Assembly (NCBI GenBank): GCA_024742765.1
Contig: JANSXT010000024.1
Span: 1 to 56,060 of the forward strand
From: Phyllobacteriaceae bacterium
Lineage (GTDB): Bacteria > Pseudomonadota > Alphaproteobacteria > Rhizobiales > Rhizobiaceae
Direction: 5' to 3'
DNA: 56,060 nucleotides
Shown: in pieces, positions 5,387 through 27,706 of the stretch
Position numbering within the stretch: the first letter of the stretch is position 1
How the letters are laid out: each line of letters opens with the position of its first letter
Program-made: the position numbers and the translations under genes
Notes under the pieces: model-generated
What the model was told of the DNA's origin: nothing
The model's input: the letters and a program-made list of their open reading frames with translations, nothing else
Database searches by the model: none

Positions 5387-5464
5387 GTTGGTTTCCTGTA
5401 AGTTGACCCTGCAACGCCTTAGCACCTGCACAAGCTGCAGCGCAATATCGCGCCCACGATTGCT

Positions 5465-6526: not shown

Positions 6527-8150
6527 CGGCAAAGTCTTTCGGCGGCCCTCCGGGAATGCCCCACCAAGCCACCACCAGCCCGAAAGCAACCACGGCCCAT
6601 GTGTACCACAGGCCCGAATAGATATCCCCGGTGCTGGCCACGATCACCCCGGCAATCAGCGGCAGGAACCCGCCGAGATAGCCCGCGCCGATATGATAGG
6701 GGATCGACATCGAGGAATAGCGGATGCGCGGCGGGAACATTTCCGACAACAGGGCCGCAACCGAACCATAGGTCAACGCCGAAAGCATCCCCAGCGCCAG
6801 CAGGATGCCGACAATGCCGATGATGTTGGCCATATCCGGCTGCTGTTTGGAAAAATCGAAGCCATATTGTCCCAGCGCGGCATGAATGCCCGCACGCCGC
6901 GCGGCGCTGTCGCTGAACCATGCCGGATCAATCGCAACCGGCTTTCCGCCCGCCATCAGCGCCAGCCTGTCGCCCTGCGTCAGTGTATAAGGCACGCCCG
7001 ACGCGGTCAGCGTTTCCAGCACCTTGCCGCAATCGGTCTGTTCGCGCTTGAACAGTTCGGCAAAGGGATCGGTCACGCATTCCGGGCCGCTGATGGTTAT
7101 CGGCGTTTGTTCTGCCGCTTTTGCAAGCCCCGGATTGGCCAGACTGCCCATCATCCAGAACAGCGGGAACAGCAATGCCAGCGTCAGCGCTGCGCCAATG
7201 ATGATCGGCTTCTTGCGCCCCACCCTGTCAGACCATTTGCCGACGATCAGATAGAAGCTCATCGCGATGATGCCGGAAATCAGCAGGACAATCTCGACCG
7301 TCTGATCATCGACATGCATCGGCCCGCGCAGAAAGCTCATCCCCGAAAAGAACGCAGTGTACCAGATCGTCGTCAGGATGCCGGTAACCCCGAACAGCGC
7401 GACGAAGATGCGCTTGCCATTGCCGGGATAGGTAAAGCTTTCAATGAAGGGATTGCCCGATGTCTCACCCGCTTCCTTCATCGCCTGGAACACCGGGCTT
7501 TCCGACAGTTTCAACCGCATCCACAGCGAAATGATCAGCAGCACGATCGACAGCAGGAACGGCACGCGCCAGCCCCACGCGGCAAATGCGTCTGCCGGGA
7601 TCAGGAAACGGCAGGCCAGCACCACGATGATCGACAGCACAAACCCGCCCGCGACGCTGGCCTGAATGAAGCTGGTGTAGAAGCCGCGCTTTTCCGGAGG
7701 GGCGTGTTCCGCGACATAAATCGCCGCCCCGCCATATTCGCCGCCCAGCGCAAGGCCCTGTATCACCCGCAGCAATATGACGATCACCGGCGCGGCCATG
7801 CCGATCGTGTCGACGGTGGGGATCAGGCCCACCCCGGCGGTGGCAATGCCCATCAGCGTTACCGTGACAAGAAAGGTATATTTGCGCCCCAGCCTGTCGC
7901 CCAGAAAGCCGAACAGGATCGCTCCCAGCGGCCGGAACGCGAAGCCGACCGCGAAGGTGGACCACACCAGCAACAGGCCCAGCGTTTCGTTATCCGTGGC
8001 GTAGAACGCATCTTTCAGGATGTAGGCGAGCGTGCCGTAGATGAAGAAATCATACCATTCGAAAATGGTCCCGGCGCTGGACGCGCCGATGACCAGACGG
8101 ATTTCATTCTCGCTCGGCTCGCGGTCCGCAAGCGCCTGCGCTTCAGCCAT
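6519..8150 (-). CDS. MFS transporter, metabolite:H+ symporter family
   Basis: Inner-membrane transporter of the MHS subfamily of the major facilitator superfamily (relatives carry shikimate, 2-oxoglutarate, proline or citrate). The 543-residue protein opens with the family signature (ASSAGTIFEWYDFFIYGTLA) and has the loop motif GDRLGRKY and about twelve membrane segments. A segment of about 110 residues (roughly 345-455, between ALLFPLFWMMG and IIGIVGILLALGM) is non-membrane and carries two cysteines; it is probably a periplasmic loop of unusual length. The substrate cannot be predicted. The gene overlaps alr by eight bases. Confidence 0.85.
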   Translation of the reverse strand: MAEAQALADREPSENEIRLVIGASSAGTIFEWYDFFIYGTLAYILKDAFYATDNETLGLLLVWSTFAVGFAFRPLGAILFGFLGDRLGRKYTFLVTVTLMGIATAGVGLIPTVDTIGMAAPVIVILLRVIQGLALGGEYGGAAIYVAEHAPPEKRGFYTSFIQASVAGGFVLSIIVVLACRFLIPADAFAAWGWRVPFLLSIVLLIISLWMRLKLSESPVFQAMKEAGETSGNPFIESFTYPGNGKRIFVALFGVTGILTTIWYTAFFSGMSFLRGPMHVDDQTVEIVLLISGIIAMSFYLIVGKWSDRVGRKKPIIIGAALTLALLFPLFWMMGSLANPGLAKAAEQTPITISGPECVTDPFAELFKREQTDCGKVLETLTASGVPYTLTQGDRLALMAGGKPVAIDPAWFSDSAARRAGIHAALGQYGFDFSKQQPDMANIIGIVGILLALGMLSALTYGSVAALLSEMFPPRIRYSSMSIPYHIGAGYLGGFLPLIAGVIVASTGDIYSGLWYTWAVVAFGLVVAWWGIPGGPPKDFADD

Positions 8151-8202
8151 GTTGCTCTATCCCCTTGTGCGCGGCCGCGCTGGCGGCATCTTCGCCCAAC
8201 CC

Positions 8203-8643
8203 CTAGCCCGCGTCGGCGCGGCTTGAAAGCGCCTTGGTGGCGGCCTTCCACGGCAATAGCAGGGCACCGTGCCGGCCGGGATGATCGCGCGCCGGCGCCA
8301 GCAGGTTAAGATCGGGCCAGTCAGGCAGTGCGGATGTTCCTGCCAGCCATGCCTCGATCCCGTTCAGGGTCGCAGCGATGGCGCCCGCGTTCCGGTCTGC
8401 TGCCCCTTGGGCAAGCAGCGCTGCCGAAGCCTGTCCGATCGCGCAGGCTCTGACCTGCATTCCGATCCGGGCGATACCCCCATCCCCGGCGATATCCAGC
8501 CCCAGCACGATCTCGCTCCCACAGGTCCGCGAACGGGCCTCTGCCCGCAAGGCAAGGCGATCATCGAGCGGATAGGCCGCCAGTGCCATGGCCTGCGCCA
8601 GCAGTTCGGGCGAATAGAGTTTGGGCGGACGCGGCATGGCCAT
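8203..8643 (-). CDS. IscU/NifU-like Fe-S scaffold protein
   Basis: A 146-residue protein of the IscU/NifU N-terminal superfamily, which assembles iron-sulfur clusters. Two of the three cluster cysteines are seen, in SRTCGSEIV (near residue 41) and ACAIGQASAALL (near 67). The third, expected before the LLPWKA segment, is absent; GRHGALLLPWKA has histidine and glycine there. Short alphaproteobacterial relatives resemble this form. The ATG at 8637 is an alternative start. It begins seven bases after the cvpA stop, so co-transcription is likely. Whether it is an active scaffold or a paralogue is not clear. Confidence 0.75.
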   Translation of the reverse strand: MAMPRPPKLYSPELLAQAMALAAYPLDDRLALRAEARSRTCGSEIVLGLDIAGDGGIARIGMQVRACAIGQASAALLAQGAADRNAGAIAATLNGIEAWLAGTSALPDWPDLNLLAPARDHPGRHGALLLPWKAATKALSSRADAG

Positions 8644-8649
8644 GGCCTG

Positions 8650-9195
8650 TCAGCCGGCAGCTTTGGCGGCCGCGGCTTCCTGCTTTTCGGATTCGCGGCG
8701 CAGCCGGTCGCGGCGGACGGAAATCATCGGGATCAGCTGGCGCGAGAAGCTGTCGGCGGCAGGATAGGTGCGGGCCGTGGTAATCCAGATCGGCCGGCCC
8801 TTGTAACCCCACGAATCGTCGAACCCGAGCACCAGCACGGAAAAGGCGAACACCGCAATCAGCGCGCCCTTAATGGCGCCGAAACCAAAGCCGAGCACGC
8901 GATCAATCGGCCCGAGGATCGCGCCTTCGGATGCTTCGCTGAAATTGCCCGCAATGACCTTCATCGCCGCATAGGGGATCAGCAGCAGCAGGACGAAGGC
9001 AAAGACCGGCGTCACCGCATCGGACCGGTAGAAGTCGCTCAACGCAGGCGTCAGCCGGGGGTGCAGGTAATGCACTGCAAAGGCTGCAAATATCCACGCC
9101 GCCAGCGACAGGACTTCCTGCACAAGTCCGCGCATTAAGCCGCCGATTGCGGCGATGGTAACGATGATGAGGATGAGGATGTCGAGCCCGGCCAT
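8650..9195 (-). CDS. cvpA: CvpA family membrane protein
   Basis: A 181-residue inner-membrane protein with four predicted membrane segments: residues 4-24, around 30-45, 63-82 and 105-125. It has the family pattern RGLVQEVLSLAAW near the N terminus. CvpA proteins are linked to colicin V export and to envelope homeostasis, but the molecular function is unknown. The C-terminal 50 residues are cytoplasmic, charged and end in an Ala/Lys-rich helix. It lies 12 bases from the radA stop, and a radA-cvpA order is common in alphaproteobacteria. Confidence 0.85.
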   Translation of the reverse strand: MAGLDILILIIVTIAAIGGLMRGLVQEVLSLAAWIFAAFAVHYLHPRLTPALSDFYRSDAVTPVFAFVLLLLIPYAAMKVIAGNFSEASEGAILGPIDRVLGFGFGAIKGALIAVFAFSVLVLGFDDSWGYKGRPIWITTARTYPAADSFSRQLIPMISVRRDRLRRESEKQEAAAAKAAG

Positions 9196-9207
9196 AAGGT
9201 CGAGGGT

Positions 9208-10575
9208 CTATGCGCTGCCCATCACCTGGTCAACGAGGTTCGCAAGCGCGGCAAGCCCGCGATATCCGTTTCCGGAATCGCCGCCCGCTCCGCCGGTCGG
9301 GCCATATGAACGGGTAAAGCCGAGCTTGGCCGCCTCGCGCAGGCGCAGCGGGGCATGGGCAACCGGGCGAATCTCGCCCGCCAGCGACACTTCGCCAAAC
9401 CACGCCGCCTTGTCGGGCAGCGGTTTGTCCGCCAGCGCCGATACCAGCGCGGCGGCCACCGCCAGATCGGCTGCCGGATCGGTCAGCCGGTAACCGCCTG
9501 CAATGTTGAGATAGACCTCGGCCGAGGAGAAATTAAGCCCGCAGCGCGATTCGAGCACCGCCAGCAGCATGGCGAGCCGGCCATTGTCCCAGCCCACAAC
9601 CGCGCGGCGCGGGGTCGCGCCCGATTGCAGCCGCACGATCAGCGCCTGAATTTCGACCAGCACCGGTCGCGTGCCTTCCAGCGCGGGGAACACCGCGCTG
9701 CCCGCTAGCGGTGTCTCGCGCCCCGACAGGAACAGCAAGGAGGGATTGGCAACCTCCTCCAACCCTTCAGCCGCCATCGCGAACACGCCGATTTCATCGA
9801 CCGCACCAAACCGGTTCTTGAGCGCGCGCAGGATGCGGTACTGGTGGCTGCGCTCGCCCTCGAAACTCATGACCACATCGACCATGTGTTCCAGCACGCG
9901 CGGCCCGGCAATGCTGCCATCCTTGGTGACATGGCCCACCAGCACCACCGCGCAGCCGGTTTCCTTGGCGTAACGGATCAGTTCCAGCGCGCAGCCGCGC
10001 ACCTGCGAAACCGTGCCGGGCGCACCTTCGATCGTGTCGGAATGCATTGTCTGGATCGAATCGATCACCAGCAGCGCAGGCGGCGTTCCCTGCCCCAGCG
10101 TTGTCAGGATATCGCGCACCGAGGTTTCCGAAGCGAGCCGGATCGGCGCATCGGCCACCCCCATGCGGGCGGCGCGCAGCCGCACCTGCCCGGCGGCTTC
10201 TTCTCCGCTGACATAGACCACATCATTGCCGCCGCGCGCGATGGTCGCTGCGGTCTGGAGCAGCAGGGTCGATTTGCCGATCCCCGGATCACCACCCATC
10301 AGCACCGCCGAACCCGGCACCAGCCCGCCGCCCAGCGCGCGGTCAAACTCGGCAAGCCCGGTCGACTTCCTGACCGGCAGCTGCGTGGGAGCATTGAGCG
10401 GCTCGAAAGCGACTGCACGCCCCCCGCGCGACAGATCATGCTTTTGCGAGAACACCGTCGCCGGTACATCCTCGACCAGCGTGTTCCACTCGCCACAATC
10501 GGCGCATTGCCCCTGCCAGCGCGGTGATACCGAACCACAGGCCTGACACACATAACGGCGTTTCGTCTTTGCCAT
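9208..10575 (-). CDS. radA: DNA repair protein RadA
   Basis: Branch-migration ATPase acting in recombinational repair. The 455-residue protein shows all family parts: an N-terminal zinc finger (CQACGSVSPRWQGQCADCG, residues 10-28), Walker A GGDPGIGKST, the RadA-specific motif LKNRFGA, and a C-terminal Lon-like domain (LNIAGGYRLTDPAADLAVAAAL). Its length is normal. It heads the minus-strand gene series and is divergent from the patatin gene, with a 73-base shared promoter region. Confidence 0.95.
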   Translation of the reverse strand: MAKTKRRYVCQACGSVSPRWQGQCADCGEWNTLVEDVPATVFSQKHDLSRGGRAVAFEPLNAPTQLPVRKSTGLAEFDRALGGGLVPGSAVLMGGDPGIGKSTLLLQTAATIARGGNDVVYVSGEEAAGQVRLRAARMGVADAPIRLASETSVRDILTTLGQGTPPALLVIDSIQTMHSDTIEGAPGTVSQVRGCALELIRYAKETGCAVVLVGHVTKDGSIAGPRVLEHMVDVVMSFEGERSHQYRILRALKNRFGAVDEIGVFAMAAEGLEEVANPSLLFLSGRETPLAGSAVFPALEGTRPVLVEIQALIVRLQSGATPRRAVVGWDNGRLAMLLAVLESRCGLNFSSAEVYLNIAGGYRLTDPAADLAVAAALVSALADKPLPDKAAWFGEVSLAGEIRPVAHAPLRLREAAKLGFTRSYGPTGGAGGDSGNGYRGLAALANLVDQVMGSA

Positions 10576-10648
10576 GCAATGCGCCCATAATAGGAACAGA
10601 ATTAGAACGCAATTGCATTGCCGCGATCATCCACGCTAGGAACGCACC

Positions 10649-12964
10649 ATGCGCCATAAAGAACTGCGCCTTGCCCTTGTCTGCTATGGCGGCGTCAGCC
10701 TTGCGGTCTACATGCATGGCATCACCAAGGAAATCTGGCATCTGGCGCGGGCCAGCCGGGGGTTTCATCAGCCCGGCCCAGTGCCGCTTGACGGGGTGGC
10801 AGCAGCCTATCACGAATTTCTGGCAGAAATTGAGCGCGAGGATGGCATCAGGCTGCGGGTCCTGCCCGATATCCTCACCGGTGCGAGCGCGGGGGGGATC
10901 AATGCGGTGTTCCTCGCCCAGGCAATCCATTCGGGCCATAGCCTCGAACCGCTGACCGACCTGTGGCTGGAAAATGCCGATGTCAGCCAACTGACCGATC
11001 CCGAGGCCGAGCCGATGTGGCGCTATGCCAAGCTGTGGGCGCAGCCGATTGCCGAATGGTTCCTGACCCGTCCGGGCAATGTGGTGAGCGAAACCGTCGC
11101 CCCCGGAACCCGAACCGAAGTGCGGCACAAGGTTTCGCGCTTCGTGCGCGGGCGCTGGTTCAGCCCGCCCTTTTCGGGAACCCGCTTTTCGGCGATGCTG
11201 CACGAAGCGCTGGAAAAAATGGCCGACGATGGCGACGGCATCACCTTGCTGCCGCCGGGACATCCGATCGACCTTGCCGTGACAGCCACCGATTTCCGCG
11301 GCTATCCGCAGACCTTGCGGCTCAATTCGCCGCCGCAGGTGGACGAGACCGAACATCGCGTGCCGATCGCTTTCCGGGCGCGGGTGGGAAGCGATCCGCC
11401 GCAACCACTGGCCGATCCGCTCGAACTGGTGCTGGCGGCGCGCGCCACCGCAAGCTTTCCCGGTGCCTTCCCGCCCCTGCGGATCAATGAGATTGATCAG
11501 CTTGCCCAGACCGAAGGGCTGGACTGGGCGACGCGCGACACCTTCCTGCGGCGTATCATGCCCGTGCATGTGCGCGACGACACAATCGCCGAGGTCGCGC
11601 TGATCGATGGTTCGGTGCTGGTCAATGCGCCCTTTGGCGCCGCGCTTGGCGCGCTGCATGGCCGCCCGGCCCAGCGCGAGGTTGACCGCCGCTTCGTCTA
11701 TATTGATCCGCGCCCCGATACCCGCGGGTTGCTGCCGTCCGACCCGCCCGACAATATCGGGTTTTTCGGCGCGATCTTCGGTTCGCTGTCCACGATCCCG
11801 CGCGAACAGCCAATCCGCGACGATCTGGAACGCATCGAGCAGCAATCGCGCGATGCTTCGCGTTTGAAGCGCATCGTGATGGATCTGGAGCCCGATATTG
11901 ATCACGCGGTGGAAAAGCTGTTCGGCTACACCTTCCTGCTTGACCGCCCGACCCCCAAACGGCTGGCAAGCTGGCGGGCCAAGGCGCAGCAGGCCGCGGC
12001 CGAACGGGTGGGCTATGCCTTTGGTGCCTATGCCCTTGCCAAGTTCGATGCCATCCTCAGCCAGCTTGCGCGCCTGACCTTGCGCGCCGCGGGTGACGGG
12101 CGGGCTGATCCGACCGCTATTGCCATGGCGCTGCGGGGCGAGCTTGCGGCACGCGGGCTGGAACGACTGACCGAAAGGGGCGGCGGGGCCACCCCTGCCG
12201 CAATCGGATTTTTCCGCGCGCATGACACCGGGTTTCGCATTCGCCGCCTGCAGATGCTGGCGCGCAAGCTATCGCGCGACTGGGAGCTTGATCCCGACAT
12301 CCCCGATGATGCGCTGGATCGCGCGCGCGACCGGTTATACGGCATCCTTGCGCTTTATTACCGCGCCGATGAAGGCGTGTTGCAGTCCGAACGTTTCGCC
12401 GTGCTGGCCGAAAGGGCGCTGGAGGCGCCCGGTTCGGTGATCGATTTCCTCGCCACCGAACGCCTGCTGCCAACCACCGACCTTGCGGCCGAGGAACTGC
12501 TGATCGACGCGCTTGAGGACATGCCGAAAAACCTCAAGCGGCGGATGCTGCTGACCTATCTCGGCTTTCCGTTCTATGATGTGGCCACCCTGCCGCTGAG
12601 CCGGCGCGAGGGGCTGGATGAATTCAATCCGGTCAAGATCGACCGCATATCCCCCGATGATGCGCGCTCGATCCGTGAAGGCGGAACCATGGCGACGCTG
12701 CGCGGGATCGAATTCTACAATTTCGGCGCCTTCTTCAGCCGCGATTACCGCGAGAATGATTACCTGTGGGGACGGCTGCACGGGGCCGAGCGGATGATCG
12801 ATCTGGTCGCCTCCACCGTGGGCGGAAGCATCCCCGAAGCCCGCATCCGGAACGCCAAGCGCGCCGCGTTTCTTGCCGTGCTGGAGGAGGAGGAGATCAC
12901 CGGAAGATGCCAGCGCGGGCTGATCGAACAGATCCGCCTCGAAGTGGGTGAGCGGATGGGTTAG
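10649..12964 (+). CDS. Patatin-like phospholipase with DUF3376-type extension
   Basis: A 771-residue protein with an N-terminal patatin-like acyl hydrolase domain and a long C-terminal region like the DUF3376/patatin-related proteins of actinobacteria and sphingomonads. The glycine-rich oxyanion motif is in YGGVSLAVYMHGITKE. The nucleophile serine is in TGASAGGIN (near residue 85), and the catalytic aspartate in LIDGSVLVNAPF. No signal peptide is seen. Substrate and role are unknown; family members act on phospholipids or related acyl esters. It overlaps the convergent DUF6445 gene by four bases. A 595-residue reading frame on the opposite strand is a shadow. Confidence 0.85.
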   Translation: MRHKELRLALVCYGGVSLAVYMHGITKEIWHLARASRGFHQPGPVPLDGVAAAYHEFLAEIEREDGIRLRVLPDILTGASAGGINAVFLAQAIHSGHSLEPLTDLWLENADVSQLTDPEAEPMWRYAKLWAQPIAEWFLTRPGNVVSETVAPGTRTEVRHKVSRFVRGRWFSPPFSGTRFSAMLHEALEKMADDGDGITLLPPGHPIDLAVTATDFRGYPQTLRLNSPPQVDETEHRVPIAFRARVGSDPPQPLADPLELVLAARATASFPGAFPPLRINEIDQLAQTEGLDWATRDTFLRRIMPVHVRDDTIAEVALIDGSVLVNAPFGAALGALHGRPAQREVDRRFVYIDPRPDTRGLLPSDPPDNIGFFGAIFGSLSTIPREQPIRDDLERIEQQSRDASRLKRIVMDLEPDIDHAVEKLFGYTFLLDRPTPKRLASWRAKAQQAAAERVGYAFGAYALAKFDAILSQLARLTLRAAGDGRADPTAIAMALRGELAARGLERLTERGGGATPAAIGFFRAHDTGFRIRRLQMLARKLSRDWELDPDIPDDALDRARDRLYGILALYYRADEGVLQSERFAVLAERALEAPGSVIDFLATERLLPTTDLAAEELLIDALEDMPKNLKRRMLLTYLGFPFYDVATLPLSRREGLDEFNPVKIDRISPDDARSIREGGTMATLRGIEFYNFGAFFSRDYRENDYLWGRLHGAERMIDLVASTVGGSIPEARIRNAKRAAFLAVLEEEEITGRCQRGLIEQIRLEVGERMG

Positions 12965-13584
12965 CTCCGGGCCGGGGCAAAGAACAACAGCATGACCAGC
13001 CGCGCATCCTCGGGCGTGGTGCCAAACCCCGGCGCGGCGTTGTGGAATTGCCAGGGCGAGAACAACAGCAGCCGGTTGAACCGCGCCGGAACGCGCAGCA
13101 CCCGCTCCCATTTGGCCGGGGCAAGCGTGTCCTTGTTGACCACATCCTCGATCAGCGCGTTGGCATCGGCATAGCCCGAAGCGGCGATCTGCGCCGGGTC
13201 CTGCGGCACGGCTTCCAGCCCGGTGCGCTTGTGACGGAAGAAATCGGTGCCGCCGGCATCGGGCTTGGCGCAATCCTCGGGGCGTGAAAGGTAGAGGATG
13301 CCGGAATAGCTGGCCGGGTCGATATGCACCCCGCTTTTGCCCTTGTCGCCCTTGCGGGTCAGGCGGCAATGCCCGTGCTGGGTGCCGGGCGCTGCGCCAA
13401 GCCCGGACCCGAGCTGGCGCGAAACTGCGCTGTCCAACGCTGCGGTATCCAGCGGCGCGGTGGAATTGCGCCCGGGAAAATTGCCATGCTGCGCTGCCGG
13501 ATCATAGTCCAGCATCAGCGCCGCACGGCGGGCCGCCCATGGGTCCTTGAGAAAATTGTCGAGGATGATGAGCGATGGCAGCAC
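12961..13584 (-). CDS. DUF6445 family protein, 2OG-Fe oxygenase-like
   Basis: A 207-residue protein resembling the DUF6445 family, which has a double-stranded beta-helix fold similar to prolyl hydroxylase-type Fe(II)/2-oxoglutarate oxygenases. A possible iron-binding His-x-Asp is present in SGVHIDPASYSG near residue 88, with a distal histidine in WQFHNAAPGFG near residue 183. It has no signal peptide and no membrane segment. Its stop overlaps the patatin stop, and its start is six bases from the dnaJ stop on the same strand, so it may be read with dnaJ or independently. The substrate is unknown. Confidence 0.6.
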   Translation of the reverse strand: MLPSLIILDNFLKDPWAARRAALMLDYDPAAQHGNFPGRNSTAPLDTAALDSAVSRQLGSGLGAAPGTQHGHCRLTRKGDKGKSGVHIDPASYSGILYLSRPEDCAKPDAGGTDFFRHKRTGLEAVPQDPAQIAASGYADANALIEDVVNKDTLAPAKWERVLRVPARFNRLLLFSPWQFHNAAPGFGTTPEDARLVMLLFFAPARS

Positions 13585-13590
13585 CGCGCA

Positions 13591-14742
13591 TCAACCGCCG
13601 AACACGTCCTTGAGCTTGTCGAAGAAACCGCGGGTTTCAGGGCATTCGTCGCCGGTCTCGGTTTCGCGGAATTCCTCAAGCAGCTCTTTCTGCCGGCGCG
13701 AGAGTTTTGTCGGGGTTTCGACCATGATCTCGACCACCAGATCGCCGCGCCCGCGCCCTTGCAACACCGGCATCCCCGCGCCGCGGATGCGCAGCTGCTT
13801 GCCCGACTGGATCCCGACCGGGATTTCAAGCCGGTTGGTTGAACCATCAAGATCGGGGATCTCCACGCAGCCGCCCAGCGCCGCCGTGGTGAAGGACACC
13901 GGCACACGCGTCATCAGCGTGGTGCCTTCGCGTTCGAACACGCGGTGCTGCTGGACATGGAGGAAGATGTAGAGATCGCCCGCCGGCGCGCCGCGCTGCC
14001 CGGCCTCGCCCTTTCCGGACAGGCGGATGCGCGTGCCGGTATCGACCCCGGCGGGAATATCCACCTTGAGCGCCTGCGGAAGGTCCACCCGGCCCTCGCC
14101 CCGGCATTCGCGGCAGGGATTTTCGATCAGGCTGCCGCGCCCGTTGCAGGTGGGGCACGGGCGCTCGATCACGAACAGCCCCTGCTTGGCGCGGACGGAA
14201 CCCATGCCATTGCACAGGTTGCAGGTGCGCTCGCTGGTGCCGGGGGTTGCGCCGCTGCCGTCGCAGGTATCGCAGGATTGGCTGACCTCGATTTCGACTT
14301 CGGTGGTCTTGCCGTGGAAGGCCTCTTCGAGGGTGACCTGCATGTCATAACGCAGATCCGCGCCGCGCCGGTTCTGCTGGCGCTGTGCCCCACCGCCGCC
14401 AAAGGCGCTGCCGAAGATGGTTTCGAAAATGTCGCCGATATCGGCAAAATCGCCGCGCCCGCCCCCGGAACCACCGCCGCCAAACGGCCCGCCGCCGCCG
14501 TTCATGCCCTGGGTGAAAGCCTCGTGACCAAAACGATCATAGGCCGCGCGTTTCTGCGGGTCCTTAAGGCAATCATAGGCCTCGTTGATTGCCTTGAACT
14601 TCGCCTCGCACGAGGCATCGCCCGGATTGCGGTCCGGGTGATATTTCATCGCAAGCTTGCGATAGGCGCTCTTGAGCACTGCCCCGTCGGCATCGCGCGA
14701 GACTTCGAGCGTCTGGTAGTAATCTATCTGGGCGCTGGACAT
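13591..14742 (-). CDS. dnaJ: Chaperone DnaJ, sphingomonad-like copy
   Basis: Hsp40 co-chaperone that stimulates DnaK ATPase and delivers unfolded clients. The 383-residue protein has the J domain with HPD ([10 protein letters not shown]), a Gly-rich linker, four CxxCxGxG zinc repeats ([32 protein letters not shown]) and the C-terminal substrate domain. RBS GGGGAATAGG precedes the ATG. It follows dnaK in the usual order, with a hairpin between them. Its N terminus (SSAQIDYYQTLEVSRDADG) resembles sphingomonad DnaJ more than rhizobial DnaJ. A second, clearly different dnaJ is at 41259-42392. Confidence 0.95.
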   Translation of the reverse strand: MSSAQIDYYQTLEVSRDADGAVLKSAYRKLAMKYHPDRNPGDASCEAKFKAINEAYDCLKDPQKRAAYDRFGHEAFTQGMNGGGGPFGGGGSGGGRGDFADIGDIFETIFGSAFGGGGAQRQQNRRGADLRYDMQVTLEEAFHGKTTEVEIEVSQSCDTCDGSGATPGTSERTCNLCNGMGSVRAKQGLFVIERPCPTCNGRGSLIENPCRECRGEGRVDLPQALKVDIPAGVDTGTRIRLSGKGEAGQRGAPAGDLYIFLHVQQHRVFEREGTTLMTRVPVSFTTAALGGCVEIPDLDGSTNRLEIPVGIQSGKQLRIRGAGMPVLQGRGRGDLVVEIMVETPTKLSRRQKELLEEFRETETGDECPETRGFFDKLKDVFGG

Positions 14743-14774
14743 GATCGTGACCTATTCCCCGTGACCAACCGCCA

Positions 14775-14808
14775 GCGATGCGCCGGATGCAAGATCCGGA
14801 CGCATCGC
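14775..14808. other. Hairpin between dnaK and dnaJ
   Basis: GCGATGCG at 14775-14782 pairs with CGCATCGC at 14801-14808, and the interior CGGAT/ATCCG extends the stem. There is no T-run, so this is more likely an mRNA-processing or attenuation stem that lets dnaK mRNA outnumber dnaJ than a complete terminator. Confidence 0.55.
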
Positions 14809-14833
14809 CCGCAAGCTGGGTGGCATCGGGGCC

Positions 14834-16744
<1,911 letters not shown>

Positions 16745-16864
16745 GTCTAACCTCTTTCTTCAGCGAACCGCACGGACCCGTTATGGCGTTCGTATGCGCG
16801 GCCCCTCTTCGTTGGCAGATCGATTGTTTCCGGACGGCGCAAAAGGCGCCATCCGCGCTGGCGG

Positions 16865-16895
16865 GTATATAAGGAGGGCGCATTTTGCGTGCAAG
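16865..16895 (-). promoter_or_regulatory. Heat-shock (sigma-32) promoter of dnaK
   Basis: On the minus strand, CTTG (16895-16892), 18 bases, then CTTATATAC (16873-16865) match the alphaproteobacterial RpoH consensus CTTG-N17/18-CYTATNT. Transcription would start about 113 bases before the dnaK ATG. Confidence 0.7.
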
Positions 16896-16940
16896 GCGCG
16901 TGGTTTGGAATGTTTGGGATGCGAGGACGGTCGAGCGCGC

Positions 16941-19217
16941 CTACTGGCCGAGGATCACATCGAGAACGGTTCTCGATTGTCCCTGTTGCGCGCCGACATC
17001 GGCCTGCGGACGCGGCGCGCCCGTCGAGGAGGTGACGGTGCGGTCCGGCGGCGGCAGGGCGATGCGCTCGCGCGCCACCGCGCCCGATGGCGGCGACCGG
17101 TCGCTGGCGATCGGCGTGCCGCCGTCGACAGGCGCGGAAGGCCGCCGGCCGGGTCCGAACGGAAAGCCTTCGGGACGCGGCTTGGGAATGACGTTGAAGG
17201 GCATGTAGCCGGGCAGGTCCGTGATCGGCAAACCCTGGTGCGCGGCGACCATGAAATCGCGCCACGCCTCGGCCGGCAGCGTGCCGCCGGTGACGTTCTT
17301 CATCGGCTTGCCGTCATCATTGCCGAACCAGACGCCCGTCACCAGATGCGCCGTATAGCCGACGAACCAGGCATCGCGCGCATTCTGGGTGGTGCCGGTC
17401 TTGCCGGCGGCGGGATGGTCGAACCGCGCCGCCCGGGCGGTGCCCGCGCGCACGGTCTGGCTCATCATCTGGTTCATCATGCCGGCCAGATCGGGCGGCA
17501 GCACGCGGCTGGGGCTTTCGGTGCGTTCATACAGCACCTCGCCATCCATCGTCGTCACCCGCCGGATCAGATGCGGCGCGGCGCGATAGCCGCCGGATGC
17601 GAACGGCACATAGGCCGATGTCAGCTCATAGAGCGTGACTTCGGACGTGCCCAGAGACAACGACCCGTTGGCCTTGAGCGGCGAGGCGATGCCCATCTTC
17701 TGTGCCGTGCGGACGACCGTGCCCGGGCCGCTTTCCATGATCAGTTGCGCGGCGACCGAGTTGAGCGATTTCGACAGCGCGGTCTCCAGCGTGACCGGCC
17801 CGTGATACTTCCCGCGATAATTCTCCGGCGACCAGTTGCCAAACCGGACCGGCGTGTCGTTGCGCACCGATGACGGCAGCGCGCCGTTTTCCAGCGCGGC
17901 CAGATAGACAAACGGCTTGAACGCGGAGCCGGGCTGGCGCTTGGCCTGGCTGGCCCGGTCGAACTGCGAGACGGCGTAATCGACGCCGCCGACCATGGCG
18001 CGGACGGCGCCGGTCGGATCGATCGCCACCAGCGCGCCCTGGCTGACATCGCGCTCGGCGCCATATTCGGCGACCGCGGCGCGGATCGCCGTTTCGCCGG
18101 CGGTTTGCAGGTAGAGATCGACCGTGGTGTCGACGATCACGTCCTGGCGGACTTCGCCGATCAGTTGCGGCAGTTCCTCCATGACGGCATCGGCGACGTA
18201 GTGATGCGCGCCGGACCAGTAACGGTTGGCGCGGGCAGCGGGGCTCGCCAGGGCCGCGGTCATTTCCGTGTCCGACACAAGCTCCTGTTCGCGCATCACC
18301 GAAAGAACCACTTGGGCGCGGCGTTCGGCCCGTTCGGGATTGCGGTTGGGCGACAGGCGCGACGGCGCCTTCAAAAGCCCGGCGAGAAGCGCCGCTTCGG
18401 GCAGCGACACGTCCCGCGCCGACTTGCCGAAATAGCGGCGCGCGGCAGCTTCCACGCCATAGGAGCCAGAACCGAAATAGACGCGGTTCAGATAGAGTTC
18501 GAGGATCTGCTCCTTGGAATATTCGTGTTCGAGCCACAGGGCCAGCAGCACCTCCTGGACCTTGCGGCCGATTGTGCGCTCAGGCGTCAGGAACAGGTTC
18601 TTGGCGAGCTGCTGCGTGAGCGTCGAGCCGCCCTGCACCAGCCCGCCCGCCATGACGTTGCGCGCCATCGCGCGGGTCAGGCCGATGGGGTCGACGCCGA
18701 AATGGGAGAAATAACGTCGGTCCTCGATGGCGATGACGGCCTTGGGAATATAGGGGCTCATCTCATGCAGACCAACCGCCGCGCCGCCGGTCGCGCCGCG
18801 ATTGGTGACCAGCGTTCCGTCGACGGCGATGATCTTGACGTTGGGCGGCCTGTCGGGAACGACCCATGCGCTCGCCGCGGGCAGTTGCGCGCCGTACCAG
18901 GCGATGATGCCGGCAAGGGCGACGCCGCCCCAGATGCAGGCGATGAACGACCAGTAGACAAGGCCGCGCAGGAAACCGCGACCGCCACCGCTCGATTTGC
19001 GGCGCCTGCCGGCCGAACTGCGTGCGGCCGGTTTTCGACGCGCGCCGGACGCCGCCTTGGTCGCCGGCTTCTTGGACGACGGCTTGCGCTTGCGCGCCGG
19101 CGGAGGCGCGGCGCGATCGGCTGCGGTCACCGAGAAATCGGCGGCCGATCTGCGGCCTCTGCGATCCTCGAACCGTGGCTCGACGCGCGTCTTGCGCTTC
19201 TTTCGTCTTGAAAACAT
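16941..19217 (-). CDS. Penicillin-binding protein 1A, bifunctional
   Basis: Peptidoglycan glycosyltransferase and transpeptidase anchored in the inner membrane. The first 100 residues are Lys/Arg-rich and cytoplasmic, followed by one membrane segment (WSFIACIWGGVALAGIIAWY). The GT51 domain has EDRRYFSHFGVDP and GGSTLTQQLAKN. The transpeptidase has SAFK (SxxK), SLNS (SxN) and KTGTT. The C terminus is proline-rich. The ATG at 19217 (MFSRRKKRK) is preferred to a TTG at 19247. A perfect CtrA box lies 64 bases upstream, fitting cell-cycle control of wall synthesis. The sequence style is rhizobial. Confidence 0.93.
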   Translation of the reverse strand: MFSRRKKRKTRVEPRFEDRRGRRSAADFSVTAADRAAPPPARKRKPSSKKPATKAASGARRKPAARSSAGRRRKSSGGGRGFLRGLVYWSFIACIWGGVALAGIIAWYGAQLPAASAWVVPDRPPNVKIIAVDGTLVTNRGATGGAAVGLHEMSPYIPKAVIAIEDRRYFSHFGVDPIGLTRAMARNVMAGGLVQGGSTLTQQLAKNLFLTPERTIGRKVQEVLLALWLEHEYSKEQILELYLNRVYFGSGSYGVEAAARRYFGKSARDVSLPEAALLAGLLKAPSRLSPNRNPERAERRAQVVLSVMREQELVSDTEMTAALASPAARANRYWSGAHHYVADAVMEELPQLIGEVRQDVIVDTTVDLYLQTAGETAIRAAVAEYGAERDVSQGALVAIDPTGAVRAMVGGVDYAVSQFDRASQAKRQPGSAFKPFVYLAALENGALPSSVRNDTPVRFGNWSPENYRGKYHGPVTLETALSKSLNSVAAQLIMESGPGTVVRTAQKMGIASPLKANGSLSLGTSEVTLYELTSAYVPFASGGYRAAPHLIRRVTTMDGEVLYERTESPSRVLPPDLAGMMNQMMSQTVRAGTARAARFDHPAAGKTGTTQNARDAWFVGYTAHLVTGVWFGNDDGKPMKNVTGGTLPAEAWRDFMVAAHQGLPITDLPGYMPFNVIPKPRPEGFPFGPGRRPSAPVDGGTPIASDRSPPSGAVARERIALPPPDRTVTSSTGAPRPQADVGAQQGQSRTVLDVILGQ

Positions 19218-19280
19218 GCGGGCCCGCACAACCGTGACACAGAACAAACGAACGGCCCGGTGACCCTAGAACGCGGCCAT

Positions 19281-19296
19281 TTAAGGTGCGGTTAAC
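19281..19296. promoter_or_regulatory. CtrA box upstream of PBP1A
   Basis: TTAAGGTGCGGTTAAC matches the full CtrA consensus TTAA-N7-TTAAC exactly. It is 64 bases upstream of the PBP1A start, inside a probable promoter. Confidence 0.65.
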
Positions 19297-19298
19297 CG

Positions 19299-19331
19299 AG
19301 CGGGCCTGACAGGTTGGTTCCCCGGCCCGCT
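19299..19331. terminator. GC-rich hairpin downstream of the M20 peptidase gene
   Basis: Perfect 8-base arms AGCGGGCC and GGCCCGCT are separated by 17 bases, directly after the M20 gene on the minus strand. There is no T-run, so termination is uncertain. Confidence 0.3.
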
Positions 19332-19336
19332 GGCGA

Positions 19337-20737
19337 TCATTTCGAGGCGAGTGCGTCGAGAATGCGCGCCCAGGAGCGCTGACCCTTGGTGAACGAGGCC
19401 AGATTGTATTTCTCGTTGGGCGAATGGATGCGGTCGTCGGACAGGGCAAAGCCGACCAGCAGCGAATCCATGCCCAGCATCGCCTTGAAATCGCCGACGA
19501 TCGGGATCGAACCGCCCATGCCGATCACCGCGGCCGGCTTCGGCCATTCGTCGGACAATGCGGCCTTTGCGGCCAGAACGGCGGGCGCGTCGGCCGACAG
19601 GACAAGGGCGGGCGACGCGCCATGCTCGGCGAACGCCACCGAACAATCGGCGGGGACGCGTTCGCGCACGAAGGCGCGAAAATTGTCGCGGATCGCTTGC
19701 GGGTCCTGACCGGCGACCAGCCGGAACGAGACCTTGGCCGACGCGGTGGCCGGAATGACGGTCTTGAACCCCTCCCCCGTATAGCCGCCGATCATGCCGT
19801 TGACCTCGGCAGTCGGCCGCGCCCATGTCAGTTCCAAGACGCTGCGGCCACGTTCGCCGGAGGGGTGTTTCAGGCCGATCTCGCCAAGAAAGGCTTCGTC
19901 GGTCATCCCCAGCGCCTTCCAGCTCTCCAGTTGCTGCGCCGGCACCTCCTCGACGCCATCGTAGAAATGCGGGATGGTTACGCGGCCGGTCTCGTCGTGC
20001 ATGGCCGCAAGGATGGCGCTCAATATGTGCAGCGGATTGGCCGCCGCGCCGCCGAAATGCCCCGAATGCAGATCGCGGTCGGCGGCGCGCACCGTGATCT
20101 CGTCGCCGGTCAGTCCGCGCAGGCTGCCGGAGATCGCCGGCGTTTCAGCGTTCCACATGGACGTGTCGCAGACGAGCGCGACATCGGCCTTCAATTCGTC
20201 GGCATGGGCTTCAAGGAACGGCTTGAGCGAGGGCGATCCGCTTTCCTCCTCGCCCTCGAACAGGATCGTGACCCGGCAGGGAAGCGCGCCGTGGACGGCC
20301 TTGTAGGCCCGGCAGGCTTCCACGAATGTCATCAACTGGCCCTTGTCGTCGGACGCACCGCGCGCCGAGATCACCTTGGTGCCGTCGACTGTCTTCACCT
20401 TCGGATCGAACGGGTCGTCGTCCCACAGTTCGAGCGGGTCGACCGGCTGGACGTCGTAATGGCCGTAGAACAGGACATGGGGCGCGTCGTCGGACGACCC
20501 TTCATGATGGGCGACCACCATCGGGTGGCCTTTTGTGTCGCGCACCGAGGCGTCAAAGCCGATCGATGCCAGATCGTCGGCCAGCCATTGCGCCGCGGCC
20601 CGGCACTCGTCCGCATAGGCCGGGTCGGTGGAGATGGAGCGGATGCGCAACAGCGCAAAGAGCCGATCGACACTGGCATCGACCGACCGGTCGAGCGTGT
20701 CGAGGACGGGTTCCAGGGCCGGTGCCGAATTGGTCAC
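19337..20737 (-). CDS. M20-family dipeptidase / metallohydrolase
   Basis: A 466-residue cytoplasmic zinc hydrolase of the M20 dipeptidase group (PepV/CNDP-like). The first zinc ligand and catalytic Asp are in YGHYDVQP, the bridging Asp in GASDDKGQ, the catalytic Glu and ligand Glu in EGEEESGSPSL and the fourth ligand in CDTSMW. A dimerisation domain (HSGHFGGAAANPLHIL) interrupts the catalytic domain, as normal. The start is a GTG with GGAGG six bases upstream. The substrate is probably a di- or tripeptide. It stands alone, downstream of a candidate small RNA that ends in its own terminator. Confidence 0.9.
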   Translation of the reverse strand: MTNSAPALEPVLDTLDRSVDASVDRLFALLRIRSISTDPAYADECRAAAQWLADDLASIGFDASVRDTKGHPMVVAHHEGSSDDAPHVLFYGHYDVQPVDPLELWDDDPFDPKVKTVDGTKVISARGASDDKGQLMTFVEACRAYKAVHGALPCRVTILFEGEEESGSPSLKPFLEAHADELKADVALVCDTSMWNAETPAISGSLRGLTGDEITVRAADRDLHSGHFGGAAANPLHILSAILAAMHDETGRVTIPHFYDGVEEVPAQQLESWKALGMTDEAFLGEIGLKHPSGERGRSVLELTWARPTAEVNGMIGGYTGEGFKTVIPATASAKVSFRLVAGQDPQAIRDNFRAFVRERVPADCSVAFAEHGASPALVLSADAPAVLAAKAALSDEWPKPAAVIGMGGSIPIVGDFKAMLGMDSLLVGFALSDDRIHSPNEKYNLASFTKGQRSWARILDALASK

Positions 20738-20824
20738 GGATCGCCTCCATCATCATGGTTCAGTGCAGCGGCTTTTTGATGGGCTCGCACGCCGAACTTG
20801 TCAAAACCATAAACCGGGCAGGCA

Positions 20825-20960
20825 CAAAAAAAGCCATCATGCGGAGGTCACGCATGATGGCTCAAGAACGAAAGTGGCAGCCCGGAGAGGGGGATTAGGC
20901 TGCCACTGGTCCGGATCGGCGGGGGACGGGCCTTAGCCGGACAACGGCATTGCTGCCGTT
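20825..20960 (-). ncRNA. Candidate trans-acting small RNA with three hairpins
   Basis: Read on the minus strand, three consecutive perfect stems occur with no open reading frame. They are AACGGCA/TGCCGTT (20960-20943, 4-nt loop), AGTGGCAGCC/GGCTGCCACT (20907-20873, 15-nt loop) and AGCCATCATGCG/CGCATGATGGCT (20862-20832, 7-nt loop). The last stem is followed by seven Ts and makes a good rho-independent terminator. The loops of the second and third hairpins are rich in C and contain CCTC, an anti-Shine-Dalgarno type motif seen in alphaproteobacterial trans-acting sRNAs. No protein gene upstream on this strand needs that terminator. The 5' end is a guess; a CtrA box overlaps the presumed promoter. 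Confidence 0.5.
20826..20862 (-). terminator. Rho-independent terminator of the candidate small RNA
   Basis: A 12-base perfect stem (20832-20843 with 20851-20862) with a 7-base loop is followed on the minus strand by a seven-T run. Confidence 0.75.
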
Positions 20961-20974
20961 AATGGTAAATTAAC
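20959..20974. promoter_or_regulatory. CtrA box between the M20 and GlmS-like genes
   Basis: TTAATGGTAAATTAAC is an exact TTAA-N7-TTAAC CtrA site. It touches the presumed start of the candidate small RNA and is 258 bases upstream of the GlmS-like gene. Further right, at 21011-21024, GATTTC-AC-GAAATC forms a perfect six-base dyad that could be another operator. Confidence 0.6.
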
Positions 20975-21231
20975 AGAGCGTTTGCGGCGAAATATTGGCA
21001 GAGGCGACCTGATTTCACGAAATCACACAAGTGTCATGGACCGTGTACGTTTACTGTGGCGGGAAACGCACCATGACATCGCTCCGACGTGCCCCTATAC
21101 ATGCGCCGGTTACGGGGCGATGCATGAAGTGAACGGGCGCCTGTGATTCGCGCTTGAGTCCCGCATCCGCGGCGTTTCAAAGCTGTTTCGGCCGTCAGGC
21201 GCGGCGCGAGGTCCATGCGAGGGGAAGAACC

Positions 21232-24200
21232 ATGTGCGGCATTGCCGGATATGTGACCGACGAGTTTTCCACAGGGCTGCCCGACAGCGCATTCGTCGGC
21301 GCGATTGCCGAACGTCTCGAACAGGCCGGCACCGGGGAAAAAGCGGTCGGCACGCTGGGCGACGTCATCGCGTCGCTGAAGGCGCGATTCGGCGAGATGA
21401 TGGCGATCGGCTTTGTACGCGCGGTGGCACTCGATGCCGATCTCGAGGCCGGACTGCGCGATCTCTCCGCCCGCCTCGGCGACCATGAGACCGCTCTGAC
21501 CGCGCTTTCGGAAGCCGGACGCACCGATCTCGATCCGCTGATCGAGGGCCTGCGGGACTTTGGCTGGCAGCTTGACGCCGAACTGGCCGACCATGCGGCC
21601 ACCGCACGCGGACTGGTCGGCCCCGGCATCGATCTTGGTGCGACGACGGCGCTTCACGTGGCCATTGCCGCAGAGTATGTGCTGCGTGCCAATGACCGGC
21701 TGGAGGTGCGGGGCCGCGATTCGGCGGGCATTGCCATCCAGCTCGATGTGCCGGCGGCCACGCCAGCCGGCCTGCCGGACGGGGTGGCCAGGACGCTTGC
21801 CAGCCGCACGGCCGACATCCATGCCGGGCACGGTGCGGTCTATGTGACGCCACGCGATGCCAGCGGAACCACCGTCACCTTCATCTACAAGACAGCCAAT
21901 CTGGTCGGCCGGCTTGGCGACAATGGCGCCGCGCTGCGCGATGCGCTGCGCAAGGATGCGCTGTTCTGGGCACTGGCGGCCGGAGCACGGCGCGTCTCGA
22001 TCCTGTCGCACACGCGCTGGGCCTCGCATGGTGTCATCTCGGTCGCCAATTGCCATCCGCACAACCCCTCACTGACGGGCGATGCGCCCGGCGACGCCAA
22101 GGCCGCGCTCGGCGCGATGTATGCGCTCAATGGCGATGTGGACAATCACGGCGAACTGATGACCGAACTGGTCACCAACCGGCAAAGCGCGGTCGACGCC
22201 GCGATCACCACCGATGCCAAGGTGATCCCGCTTGCCGACAGGCTGGCCGATGCCGCGTCCGACAGCCGGCTGGAACGGTTCCGCGCGGCGACGCGGCGCC
22301 TTGATGGCTCGGTGGCCATTGGCTGCATCGATCCGATGATGCCGGGCGAAGTGCTTTTGGCACAAAAGGGTTCGGGCCAGGGCCTTTATGCGGCGCGGCT
22401 TGCCGATGGGTTCATGTTCGCTTCGGAAAGCTACGGGCTTTGCAACGCGGCGCGCGAAGCGGCAAACCTTGCCCGTTCGGTCGCCGGCGGCTCGGTGATC
22501 CATCTGGATGCGAACAGGGGCGAAGCGGTCATGCGAACCGTCAATGACGGCACGCCGGCCAAGATCAAGTACGACCCGATCCAGATCTATGCGCGCGATA
22601 TCTATCGCGGCGACTTCGACACGTTCCTTGAAAAGGAAATCCATGATGGACCGACCAGCGTCGCCAAGACGCTGCGCGGCCGGTTCCGGCGCGAAAAGGG
22701 CTTGGTCGCCTTCGACAAGCTGCCCAACGATATCTGGGCGGAGTTGCGCGACGCGCTCAAGGGCGGCCTCTCGCGGGTCTATGTGATTGGCCAGGGCACG
22801 GCGGGCGTTGCCGCAGTGGGCATCGGCCATCTGGTTGAAAAGGCCATCGCACGCGACAGCCGGTTGCGCATTCCGGTCGAGGCGGTGCGCTCGTCGGAAC
22901 TGTCGGCCGATATCGATGCCTACGATTTCAAGCGCTCGCTGGTGATCGCCGTGTCGCAATCGGGCACGACGACCGACACCAACCGTGCGGTCGATCTGGC
23001 CCGCGAGCGCGGCGCATTCGTCCACGCGATCGTCAACCGGCGCAGCTCCGACCTCGTCCGCAAGGCCCATTCGGTGCTCTACACCTCCGACGGGCGGGAC
23101 GTTGAGATGTCGGTCGCCTCGACCAAGGCGTTCTACTCGCAGATCACCGCCGGCAAGCTGACCGCGCTGTTTCTGGCCGCCCAACTCGGCGCGATGACCG
23201 ATGTGGAACTGGCCTATGAAATGGGCGAACTGGAAAAGCTGCCCGGACACATCGCGGCGGTCCTGGCGGACGAAGCCCACATCGGCCGGTGCGCGCGCGA
23301 TCTGGCGCCCTGTTCCCGCTACTGGGCAGTCACCGGGTCGGGCGTCAACCATGTGGCGGCGCTGGAAATCCGGATTAAGCTGTCCGAGCTCTGCTACAAG
23401 TCGATCCCGGTCGACTTTACCGAGGACAAAAAACATATCGACCTTTCGACCGAGCCGCTGACGCTGGTGGTCGCCAACGATCTGCCCGGCGATCTGGTCG
23501 GCGACGTCGTCAAGGAAGCGGCGATCTTCAAGGCGCACAATGGCCGCCCGGTCGTCTTCGCGACCAAGGGCGCGGATGCGGACGCTTTTTCGGGCTATGC
23601 GGAACGGGTCATCGCGCTGCCCGACGTGGGCGCCGATCTGGCCTTTGTTCTTGCGACAGTGGCCGGCCATCTGTTCGGCTTTCACGCGGCACAGGCGATC
23701 GACGAAGGGGCACAAAAGCTCAAGCCGATCCTCGCGGGCCTGGGGCTGGTGGCGATGGGCGAACAAAGCGCCGACCCGCAAGCGGTCGGCGCGGCTCTTG
23801 AAACCTTCGTCGACGAGGCGGCCGATGGCGCGTTCAATTCCGGCCTCGGCGCCAGCCATCTGGCGCAGATCGCGCGCCTTGCCGGGCAGATGCGCGAAGG
23901 GTCCGATGTCGCGGGGCTGGCCCAGGCCGCCCTGCCGCTCATCCGGGACGCGTTCGAGGAAACCTCGCGGCCCGTCGACACGATCCGCCACCAGGCCAAG
24001 ACCGTCACGGTCGGCACCAGCCGCCCCGAGGACGCGCTGTCGGCGGCCATCCGCGACGCGCTTGCCGGGCTCGGTCTCGCCGACAGCCGCATGTCGTTCG
24101 ACAACCGCAAGACGCTGGCTGTCGTTTCCCGGCTGGTCGACCGGATCGAATGGGCCGCTCTGCTCGATGTCGAGGAAACGCAAGGGACCACGCTGGTGCG

Positions 24201-24606
24201 GCTGGCCGCGGGCGGCAAGGCGCCGGACGCGCTTGCCGGCTATGGCGAACCGCGAACCGGCATCGGCGTGATCGGCACGGCGCTTGACACAAATGCGCTC
24301 GCCTGCGGCTTTATCGGGCGCCAAGCGGTGATCGCGGTTCCGGTTACCGGCGCGTCCTTCGCCGGCACCGAACAGATCCTTTGCCTTTCGGTGACGATGC
24401 TCGCCCACGCCTCGCGCGACCGGAAGACGGCGGTGATGAATGCGCTGGGCACCTACCGCACGACGCTGCGCGACTGGGAGCAGACGCTCGGCGCCGACGC
24501 CGATGCGGCGCTGCAGCGGCGCATCGCCAGCGAGGACCCGCTGACCGTCACCTTCCGGCCGGCCGCCCTGGTGCCCGGCGCCGACGAGGCGCGCCAGTCC
24601 GCCTGA
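21232..24606 (+). CDS. Large GlmS-like glutaminase/SIS-domain protein
   Basis: A 1124-residue relative of glucosamine-6-phosphate synthase. The ATG at 21232 (RBS GAGGGGAAG) puts Cys at position 2, the N-terminal nucleophile of class II amidotransferases (MCGIAGY). About 150 residues separate this from RLEVRGRDSAGIAI, which in normal GlmS follows within about 40. SHTRWASHG and NGDVDNHGEL complete the glutaminase. Two SIS domains follow (IGQGTAGVAA, SQSGTTTDTNRA, STKAFYSQ near residues 515-640; TGSGVNHVAALE, FTEDKKHIDLS near 700). About 280 C-terminal residues have no known match. Ordinary GlmS has about 610 residues. It probably makes an amino sugar phosphate, but the product is unknown. Confidence 0.8.
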   Translation: MCGIAGYVTDEFSTGLPDSAFVGAIAERLEQAGTGEKAVGTLGDVIASLKARFGEMMAIGFVRAVALDADLEAGLRDLSARLGDHETALTALSEAGRTDLDPLIEGLRDFGWQLDAELADHAATARGLVGPGIDLGATTALHVAIAAEYVLRANDRLEVRGRDSAGIAIQLDVPAATPAGLPDGVARTLASRTADIHAGHGAVYVTPRDASGTTVTFIYKTANLVGRLGDNGAALRDALRKDALFWALAAGARRVSILSHTRWASHGVISVANCHPHNPSLTGDAPGDAKAALGAMYALNGDVDNHGELMTELVTNRQSAVDAAITTDAKVIPLADRLADAASDSRLERFRAATRRLDGSVAIGCIDPMMPGEVLLAQKGSGQGLYAARLADGFMFASESYGLCNAAREAANLARSVAGGSVIHLDANRGEAVMRTVNDGTPAKIKYDPIQIYARDIYRGDFDTFLEKEIHDGPTSVAKTLRGRFRREKGLVAFDKLPNDIWAELRDALKGGLSRVYVIGQGTAGVAAVGIGHLVEKAIARDSRLRIPVEAVRSSELSADIDAYDFKRSLVIAVSQSGTTTDTNRAVDLARERGAFVHAIVNRRSSDLVRKAHSVLYTSDGRDVEMSVASTKAFYSQITAGKLTALFLAAQLGAMTDVELAYEMGELEKLPGHIAAVLADEAHIGRCARDLAPCSRYWAVTGSGVNHVAALEIRIKLSELCYKSIPVDFTEDKKHIDLSTEPLTLVVANDLPGDLVGDVVKEAAIFKAHNGRPVVFATKGADADAFSGYAERVIALPDVGADLAFVLATVAGHLFGFHAAQAIDEGAQKLKPILAGLGLVAMGEQSADPQAVGAALETFVDEAADGAFNSGLGASHLAQIARLAGQMREGSDVAGLAQAALPLIRDAFEETSRPVDTIRHQAKTVTVGTSRPEDALSAAIRDALAGLGLADSRMSFDNRKTLAVVSRLVDRIEWAALLDVEETQGTTLVRLAAGGKAPDALAGYGEPRTGIGVIGTALDTNALACGFIGRQAVIAVPVTGASFAGTEQILCLSVTMLAHASRDRKTAVMNALGTYRTTLRDWEQTLGADADAALQRRIASEDPLTVTFRPAALVPGADEARQSA

Positions 24607-24688
24607 CGGACAATGCAACTTGCGACCCGTTGCCGGCGTGGCGGACATGCGCTTAGCTGCCGGGACGATCACGCGATGGAGAGACGCA

Positions 24689-25576: not shown

Positions 25577-25634
25577 GCAGGCACCGGCGCGCCAGCGGTT
25601 TGCCCGCACCGAATTCCGCGTGCCCACAAGAAAA

Positions 25635-25666
25635 CGGCCCGCTCGGAAGAGCGGGCCGCTTTTTTT
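25635..25666 (+). terminator. Rho-independent terminator after the hydrolase gene
   Basis: CGGCCCGCTC (25635-25644), loop GGAA, GAGCGGGCCG (25649-25658), then seven Ts. Four As precede the stem, so it may also act weakly for the Flp pilin gene arriving on the other strand. Confidence 0.85.
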
Positions 25667-25697
25667 CCTGCCGGTTCGGCAAGCTAAGATAAAGACC

Positions 25698-27638: not shown

Positions 27639-27670
27639 GTTCGGGGTCCTTGCACGTTGGATCCCGCGTG

Positions 27671-27701: not shown

Positions 27702-27706
27702 GAGCT

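What the first reader, a model, noticed from the sequence alone, without database searches (positions are those of the whole stretch)
13591..17000. dnaK appears to be a mosaic joining sphingomonad-like and rhizobial-like DNA
Genes to the left (short proS, patatin/DUF3376, DUF6445, radA-cvpA-alr) look sphingomonad and genes to the right look rhizobial. In dnaK, the ATPase domain carries rhizobial-type stretches ([17 protein letters not shown]) while the tail ([28 protein letters not shown]) looks sphingomonad. The switch is probably in highly conserved DNA around 15250-15550. Either an assembler joined two genomes through this conserved gene, or homologous recombination brought a large segment into another lineage. 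Sequence memory, not alignment, supports the lineage calls.
Basis: partly seen in the sequence, partly recalled or inferred. Interest (0 to 1): 0.75.

Follow-up and report, generated by a model that had tools for sequence, protein, structure and literature searches.

The report
Assembly chimera inside dnaK gene
The heat-shock gene dnaK here is half from one bacterium and half from another because an assembler appears to have glued two genomes together at a short shared word, so it is very probably an artefact and not a natural hybrid gene.

Summary
dnaK (14834-16744, minus strand) is a mosaic with one sharp switch at 15309-15337. The 5' part is 95.0% identical to same-genus genome G002 and 78.6% to Erythrobacter-group genome G064; the 3' part is 98.5% identical to G064 and 70.8% to G002. 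The flanks agree: 1-14833 is collinear with G064 at 98/96%, while dnaK's 5' part and the compared right side follow Roseitalea-genus genomes.

The cause is almost certainly assembly. The native dnaK tail starts another contig of the same genome, C13, at its first bases. In G001 and G002 (and, in pieces, G004) the window's native side, an intact dnaK and C13 follow each other; G003 has other DNA behind dnaK. The switch lies in a 29-base word, the longest shared by G002 and G064 dnaK. 11 contig-end pairs overlap by exactly 141 bases, as for MEGAHIT with maxK 141. Native dnaJ and radA, and an apparent native proS, also exist. 0 of 4 sister genomes hold the left segment. Reads were not available.

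The parts
1..15308 (.). Foreign (Erythrobacter-group) segment: start of contig C39 up to the join
   Evidence: 98% nt identity over 2055-14833 and 96% over 1-1658 to G064:C4, collinear; dnaK 3' part 98.5%; tetranucleotide correlation 0.62 to own-genome pieces, which correlate 0.81-0.85 with each other
15309..15337 (-). Junction word, 29 bases, identical in the nearest native relative (L120/G002) and in G064; the switch lies in or at the edge of it
   Evidence: longest identical run between these two dnaK genes
14834..16744 (-). dnaK reading frame, chimeric: codons 1 to about 470 native, the rest foreign
15338..56060 (.). Native (Roseitalea-genus) part of the contig, as far as it was compared
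   Evidence: L120 collinear to 24.6 kb and L003 to 25.6 kb; 36.2-56.06 kb matches same-genus genomes in many pieces; 25.6-35.5 kb was judged by composition only
13591..14742 (-). dnaJ, foreign copy
41259..42407 (-). dnaJ, native copy, 60% protein identity to the foreign one
9208..10575 (-). radA, foreign copy; native copy at C26:247855-249219 (57%)
3203..4768 (-). Prolyl-tRNA synthetase, 521 aa, foreign, closest to proS_fam_I; an apparent native 441-aa enzyme is on C23
1..1658 (-). Foreign gene cut by the contig start; reads like ribonuclease R (name from recall, no family search made)
   Evidence: open frame to the contig edge; 96% to G064

Best explanation
The contig is an interspecies assembly chimera. 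In a sample that held this Roseitalea-genus organism and an Erythrobacter-group organism close to G064, the assembler joined the native dnaK 5' part to the Erythrobacter dnaK 3' part and the 14.8 kb of Erythrobacter DNA behind it, through a short word common to both genes (29 bases in the nearest available relatives). The native 3' part of dnaK and what follows it became the start of a separate contig, C13. Shown: the mosaic, the position of the switch, the origin of both sides, the native tail on C13, the native order in the nearest sister genomes, and the 141-base end overlaps. Inferred: that the sample was a metagenome assembled with MEGAHIT, that the join was made at a small k (29 is in a k list quoted for it), and that no read pair truly spans it.
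For: C13:2-427 encodes codons 495 to 634 of a native-type DnaK; it groups with G002 in the tail tree and its first 509 bases are 95.3% identical to G002. In L120 (G002) and L119/L003 (G001), window-right DNA, an intact dnaK and C13 DNA follow each other, apart from C13:510-734, which they lack; in G004 (L118) the same order is seen in pieces. Left side 98/96% to G064, collinear. The junction word is the longest identical run between G002 and G064 dnaK. 11 terminus pairs share exactly 141 end bases; neither C39:start nor C13:start occurs among the 34 listed pairs from 86 termini. End sequence of length maxK is the stated rule for MEGAHIT and metaSPAdes, and a MEGAHIT list 21,29,39,59,79,99,119,141 is quoted (PMC10914622, passages). 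Native dnaJ and radA and an apparent native proS are present besides the foreign ones. 0 of 4 same-genus genomes have the left segment; their listed matches are 64-85% identical and at most about 1 kb long. G064's neighbours on both sides of the segment are not in G000 beyond such matches (best 75% over 624 bases; 68% over 1423 bases and short pieces up to 88%).
Against: No reads were available, so neither a coverage step nor missing spans were shown. With a final k of 141 a 29-base word alone should not join two genomes, so the join must have come from an earlier small-k round or from unseen strain variants; this is not shown. C13 begins 45 bases past the last ambiguous base and shares no overlap with C39, which a simple fork does not explain. 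In G003 the DNA behind dnaK is not C13 DNA but DNA homologous to window 35.5-43.6 kb, so the native order varies in the genus. With L003, L118 or L121 in place of G002 the longest shared run lies elsewhere. The genome is rated 100% complete with 0.39% contamination.
Confidence: 0.96

Rival explanations
1. Real homologous recombination replaced the 3' part of native dnaK and the DNA behind it with Erythrobacter DNA.
For: A single clean switch inside a conserved, homologous gene, with a hybrid reading frame that stays open.
Against: Replacement would remove the native tail, but the tail, with DNA that follows dnaK in G001 and G002, is at the start of C13. Sister genomes lack the segment (0 of 4). 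Crossing over between genes of about 79% identity (window 5' part against G064) from different orders is unlikely (general knowledge).
Confidence: 0.02
2. A circular Erythrobacter-derived element that carries dnaK integrated by a single crossover, leaving a hybrid dnaK on each side.
For: Would keep the native tail, as seen on C13.
Against: It needs a foreign dnaK head somewhere in the genome; the only dnaK matches are C39 and the C13 tail. No plasmid record covers the segment: 34 of 72,556 records match (megablast), none at 80% coverage, and the 20 listed match only in or just beside dnaK. The segment is ordinary collinear DNA in G064 and relatives.
Confidence: 0.01
3. The dnaK mosaic is an old natural feature of the genus.
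For: None found.
Against: The tails of all 4 same-genus genomes group with the C13 tail and away from the window's tail.
Confidence: 0.005

Closest known systems
Interspecies chimeric contig from a short-read metagenome assembly
   Same: Two taxa joined at a word they share in a conserved gene; the true continuation starts another contig; final-k end overlaps elsewhere in the assembly.
   Different: The two parents are from different orders and the shared word is short (29 bases in the proxies), so the join fits an early small-k round better than the final graph.
'Chimeric node' of MetaVelvet (PMC8171044, passages read)
   Different: That paper speaks of evolutionarily similar species; here the parents are of different orders and meet in a conserved gene.

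Membership tests
Interspecies assembly chimera | The two sides come from different organisms | tested here: met
Interspecies assembly chimera | One sharp switch at a word shared by both parents | tested here: met
   29-base word; the parents are represented by proxies G002 and G064
Interspecies assembly chimera | The true continuation of the native side lies on another contig that starts near the switch | tested here: met
   C13 from base 1; 45 bases are missing in between
Interspecies assembly chimera | Assembly made by a de Bruijn assembler | tested here: met
   11 terminus pairs with exactly 141 shared end bases; rule from PMC10914622, passages. That it was a metagenome is inferred
Interspecies assembly chimera | Coverage step and no spanning read pairs | not testable with these tools
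   no reads held
Horizontal transfer by homologous recombination | Native allele replaced | tested here: not met
   native tail on C13
Horizontal transfer by homologous recombination | Foreign segment bounded by native DNA on both sides | tested here: inconclusive
   the far side is the contig end; C39:start is in none of the listed end-overlap pairs
Plasmid or circular element integration | Second hybrid or a full foreign dnaK copy in the genome | tested here: not met
   only C39 and the C13 tail

The most novel reading that the evidence does not exclude
A natural inter-order recombination inside dnaK brought at least 15 kb of Erythrobacter chromosome into a Roseitalea-genus cell, with the native tail kept at a second site.
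Probability: 0.02. Interest if true: 0.6.

Novelty: not a real feature. Interest (0 to 1): 0.12.

Why it matters
It shows that a genome rated 100% complete and 0.39% contaminated can hold a 15-kb piece of a genome from another order fused inside a core gene. Anyone using this contig would infer a false transfer, doubled dnaJ, radA and proS genes, and a false hybrid chaperone. PMC6777429 (passages) warns in general that misassembled metagenome-assembled genomes invite false inferences of gene duplication.

Tried and rejected
Rejected: real recombination, plasmid integration and an old genus-wide mosaic (see rivals). GC content does not tell the sides apart (64.2% against 64.4%); tetranucleotide patterns do, but the Erythrobacter and Roseitalea reference pieces used there partly cover the homologous regions, so only the comparison with other own-genome contigs is independent. 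The plasmid search gave only dnaK-centred matches among the 20 of 34 records listed. Not done: codon-usage comparison, trees of each flanking protein, read mapping, a check of the other 42 contigs for further chimeras, a family search of the 441-aa C23 frame. Limits: 34 of 114 genomes were not scored, so a genome still closer than G064 may exist; in the DNA searches of own and same-genus genomes 40 of 228-450 first-look candidates per genome were scored. The trees used 48 of 107 DnaK rows (plus the C13 tail in the second), picked by hand, with the 'quick' method. Window 25.6-35.5 kb was not compared with sister genomes. A paper search for Roseitalea with Erythrobacter gave 2 papers, not opened; of the listings I opened passages of three papers.

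Full report
What is there. The window is the whole of contig C39 of genome G000 (3,948,140 bases, 43 contigs, completeness 100, contamination 0.39). dnaK lies at 14834-16744 on the minus strand and dnaJ at 13591-14742.

The two sides. Bases 1-14833 align with G064:C4 of the genus of Erythrobacter sp. MSM4: 98% over 2055-14833 and 96% over 1-1658 (80 of 114 genomes scored, 34 not scored). Named relatives are collinear over the part held: Erythrobacter sp. MSM4 (L021) from 4.2 kb and Porphyrobacter sp. RI_32 (L007) from 4.8 kb, at about 81-82%. The other side follows Roseitalea sp. HXMU1422-4 (L003) at 88.6% and 86.0% from dnaK to 25.6 kb and G002 (L120) at 87.9% to 24.6 kb. From 36.2 kb to the contig end same-genus genomes match in many pieces. 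Tetranucleotide patterns agree: the left part correlates 0.62 with own-genome pieces and 0.84 with Erythrobacter pieces, the first right part 0.74 and 0.57, while own-genome pieces correlate 0.81-0.85 with each other. The Erythrobacter pieces partly cover the homologous region, so the 0.84 is not independent. GC content is the same on both sides.

The switch. Against G002 and G064, the best single switch lies at window 15308-15337. Before it dnaK is 95.0% identical to G002 and 78.6% to G064; after it, 70.8% and 98.5%. Of the sites where the two references differ, before the switch 257 of 298 carry the G002 base, 26 the G064 base and 15 neither; after it 131 of 133 carry the G064 base and 2 the G002 base. 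The bases common to both references at the switch form a 29-base word, 15309-15337, which is the longest identical run between these two dnaK genes; the next longest is 28. With the other three native relatives (L003, L118, L121) in place of G002 the longest run lies elsewhere. G002 is the closest of the four to the window's 5' part.

Trees. I extracted DnaK from 106 loci plus the window and used 48 of these 107 rows, chosen by hand. Residues 1-469 group with G001 and G002 (SH-aLRT 99) and with all four same-genus genomes (95). Residues 480-636 are identical to G064 over 157 columns and fall in a 9-row Erythrobacter/Porphyrobacter set (95) inside a 15-row sphingomonad set (100); the C13 tail groups with G001 and G002 (96) and with the four genomes of the genus (98).

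The missing native tail. The only other dnaK match in G000 is C13:2-427, which encodes codons 495 to 634 at 59% identity to the window's tail. It is the native tail: the first 509 bases of C13 are 95.3% identical to G002. In G004 (L118) the same order is seen in shorter pieces. In G003 (L121) only the dnaK tail of C13 matches, and DNA homologous to window 35.5-43.6 kb, with dnaJ, follows dnaK instead (all). C13 starts at dnaK base 1482, so 45 bases between the junction word and C13 are in neither contig; the longest exact match between the C13 start and the window's dnaK is 16 bases.

Assembly fingerprint. Among the 86 termini of the 43 contigs, 11 terminus pairs share exactly 141 end bases, and further pairs share 78-139; 34 pairs in all share a word of at least 20 bases within their last 300, and neither C39:start nor C13:start is among them. 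Passages of PMC10914622 say that MEGAHIT and metaSPAdes contigs broken at repeats carry end sequences of length maxK, and quote a MEGAHIT list of 21,29,39,59,79,99,119,141. That G000 is a MEGAHIT metagenome assembly is therefore an inference, and so is the idea that the join arose at k of 21 or 29. PMC8171044 (passages) describes nodes that are common to two species and have two ways in and two ways out.

Doubled genes and absent neighbours. Native copies exist of dnaJ (C39:41274-42389, 60%) and radA (C26, 57%). For proS, the only other match is weak (28% over part), in a 441-aa frame on C23 that I read as the native bacterial-type enzyme without a family search. 0 of 4 same-genus genomes hold the left segment; their listed matches are 64-85% identical and up to about 1 kb long. 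G064's DNA beyond either side of the segment (6.5 kb and 16.4 kb tested) has only ortholog-level matches in G000. So, as far as tested, the segment entered the genome with this one contig.

Verdict. The mosaic is real in the sequence and is best explained as an assembly artefact (0.96). The open points are that no reads were available, that a 29-base word is short for a final k of 141, and the 45 missing bases before C13.

Noticed in passing
window 1659-1765: A strong palindrome (z-score -8.3) in the foreign part. About 1669-1760 recurs at many places in the Erythrobacter genome G041 and at few in G042; in the window's own genus the search of 1-14833 listed only the window's own copy (40 candidates scored per genome). 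G064 and the window differ in length here (715 against 396 bases between aligned blocks).
   Followed up: partly
window 55920-56057: 138 bases identical to the end of contig C37, in the same direction; both contigs seem to run into the same repeat.
   Followed up: partly
window 20825-20961: Match to the alphaproteobacterial sRNA family ar7, RF02342, 93.8 bits, minus strand, in the native part.
   Followed up: no
window 41259-42407: Native dnaJ lies about 25 kb from dnaK in this contig, but close behind dnaK in G003 (L121); gene order around dnaK differs inside the genus.
   Followed up: no
window 3203-4768 and L165 667-1992: The Erythrobacter prolyl-tRNA synthetase (521 aa, nearest proS_fam_I) and the apparent native one (441 aa) are of two different forms, 28% alike over the matched part.
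   Followed up: partly
L117 510-734 (contig C13): About 225 bases just behind the native dnaK tail have no match in G001 or G002, whose aligned blocks almost meet there.
   Followed up: no
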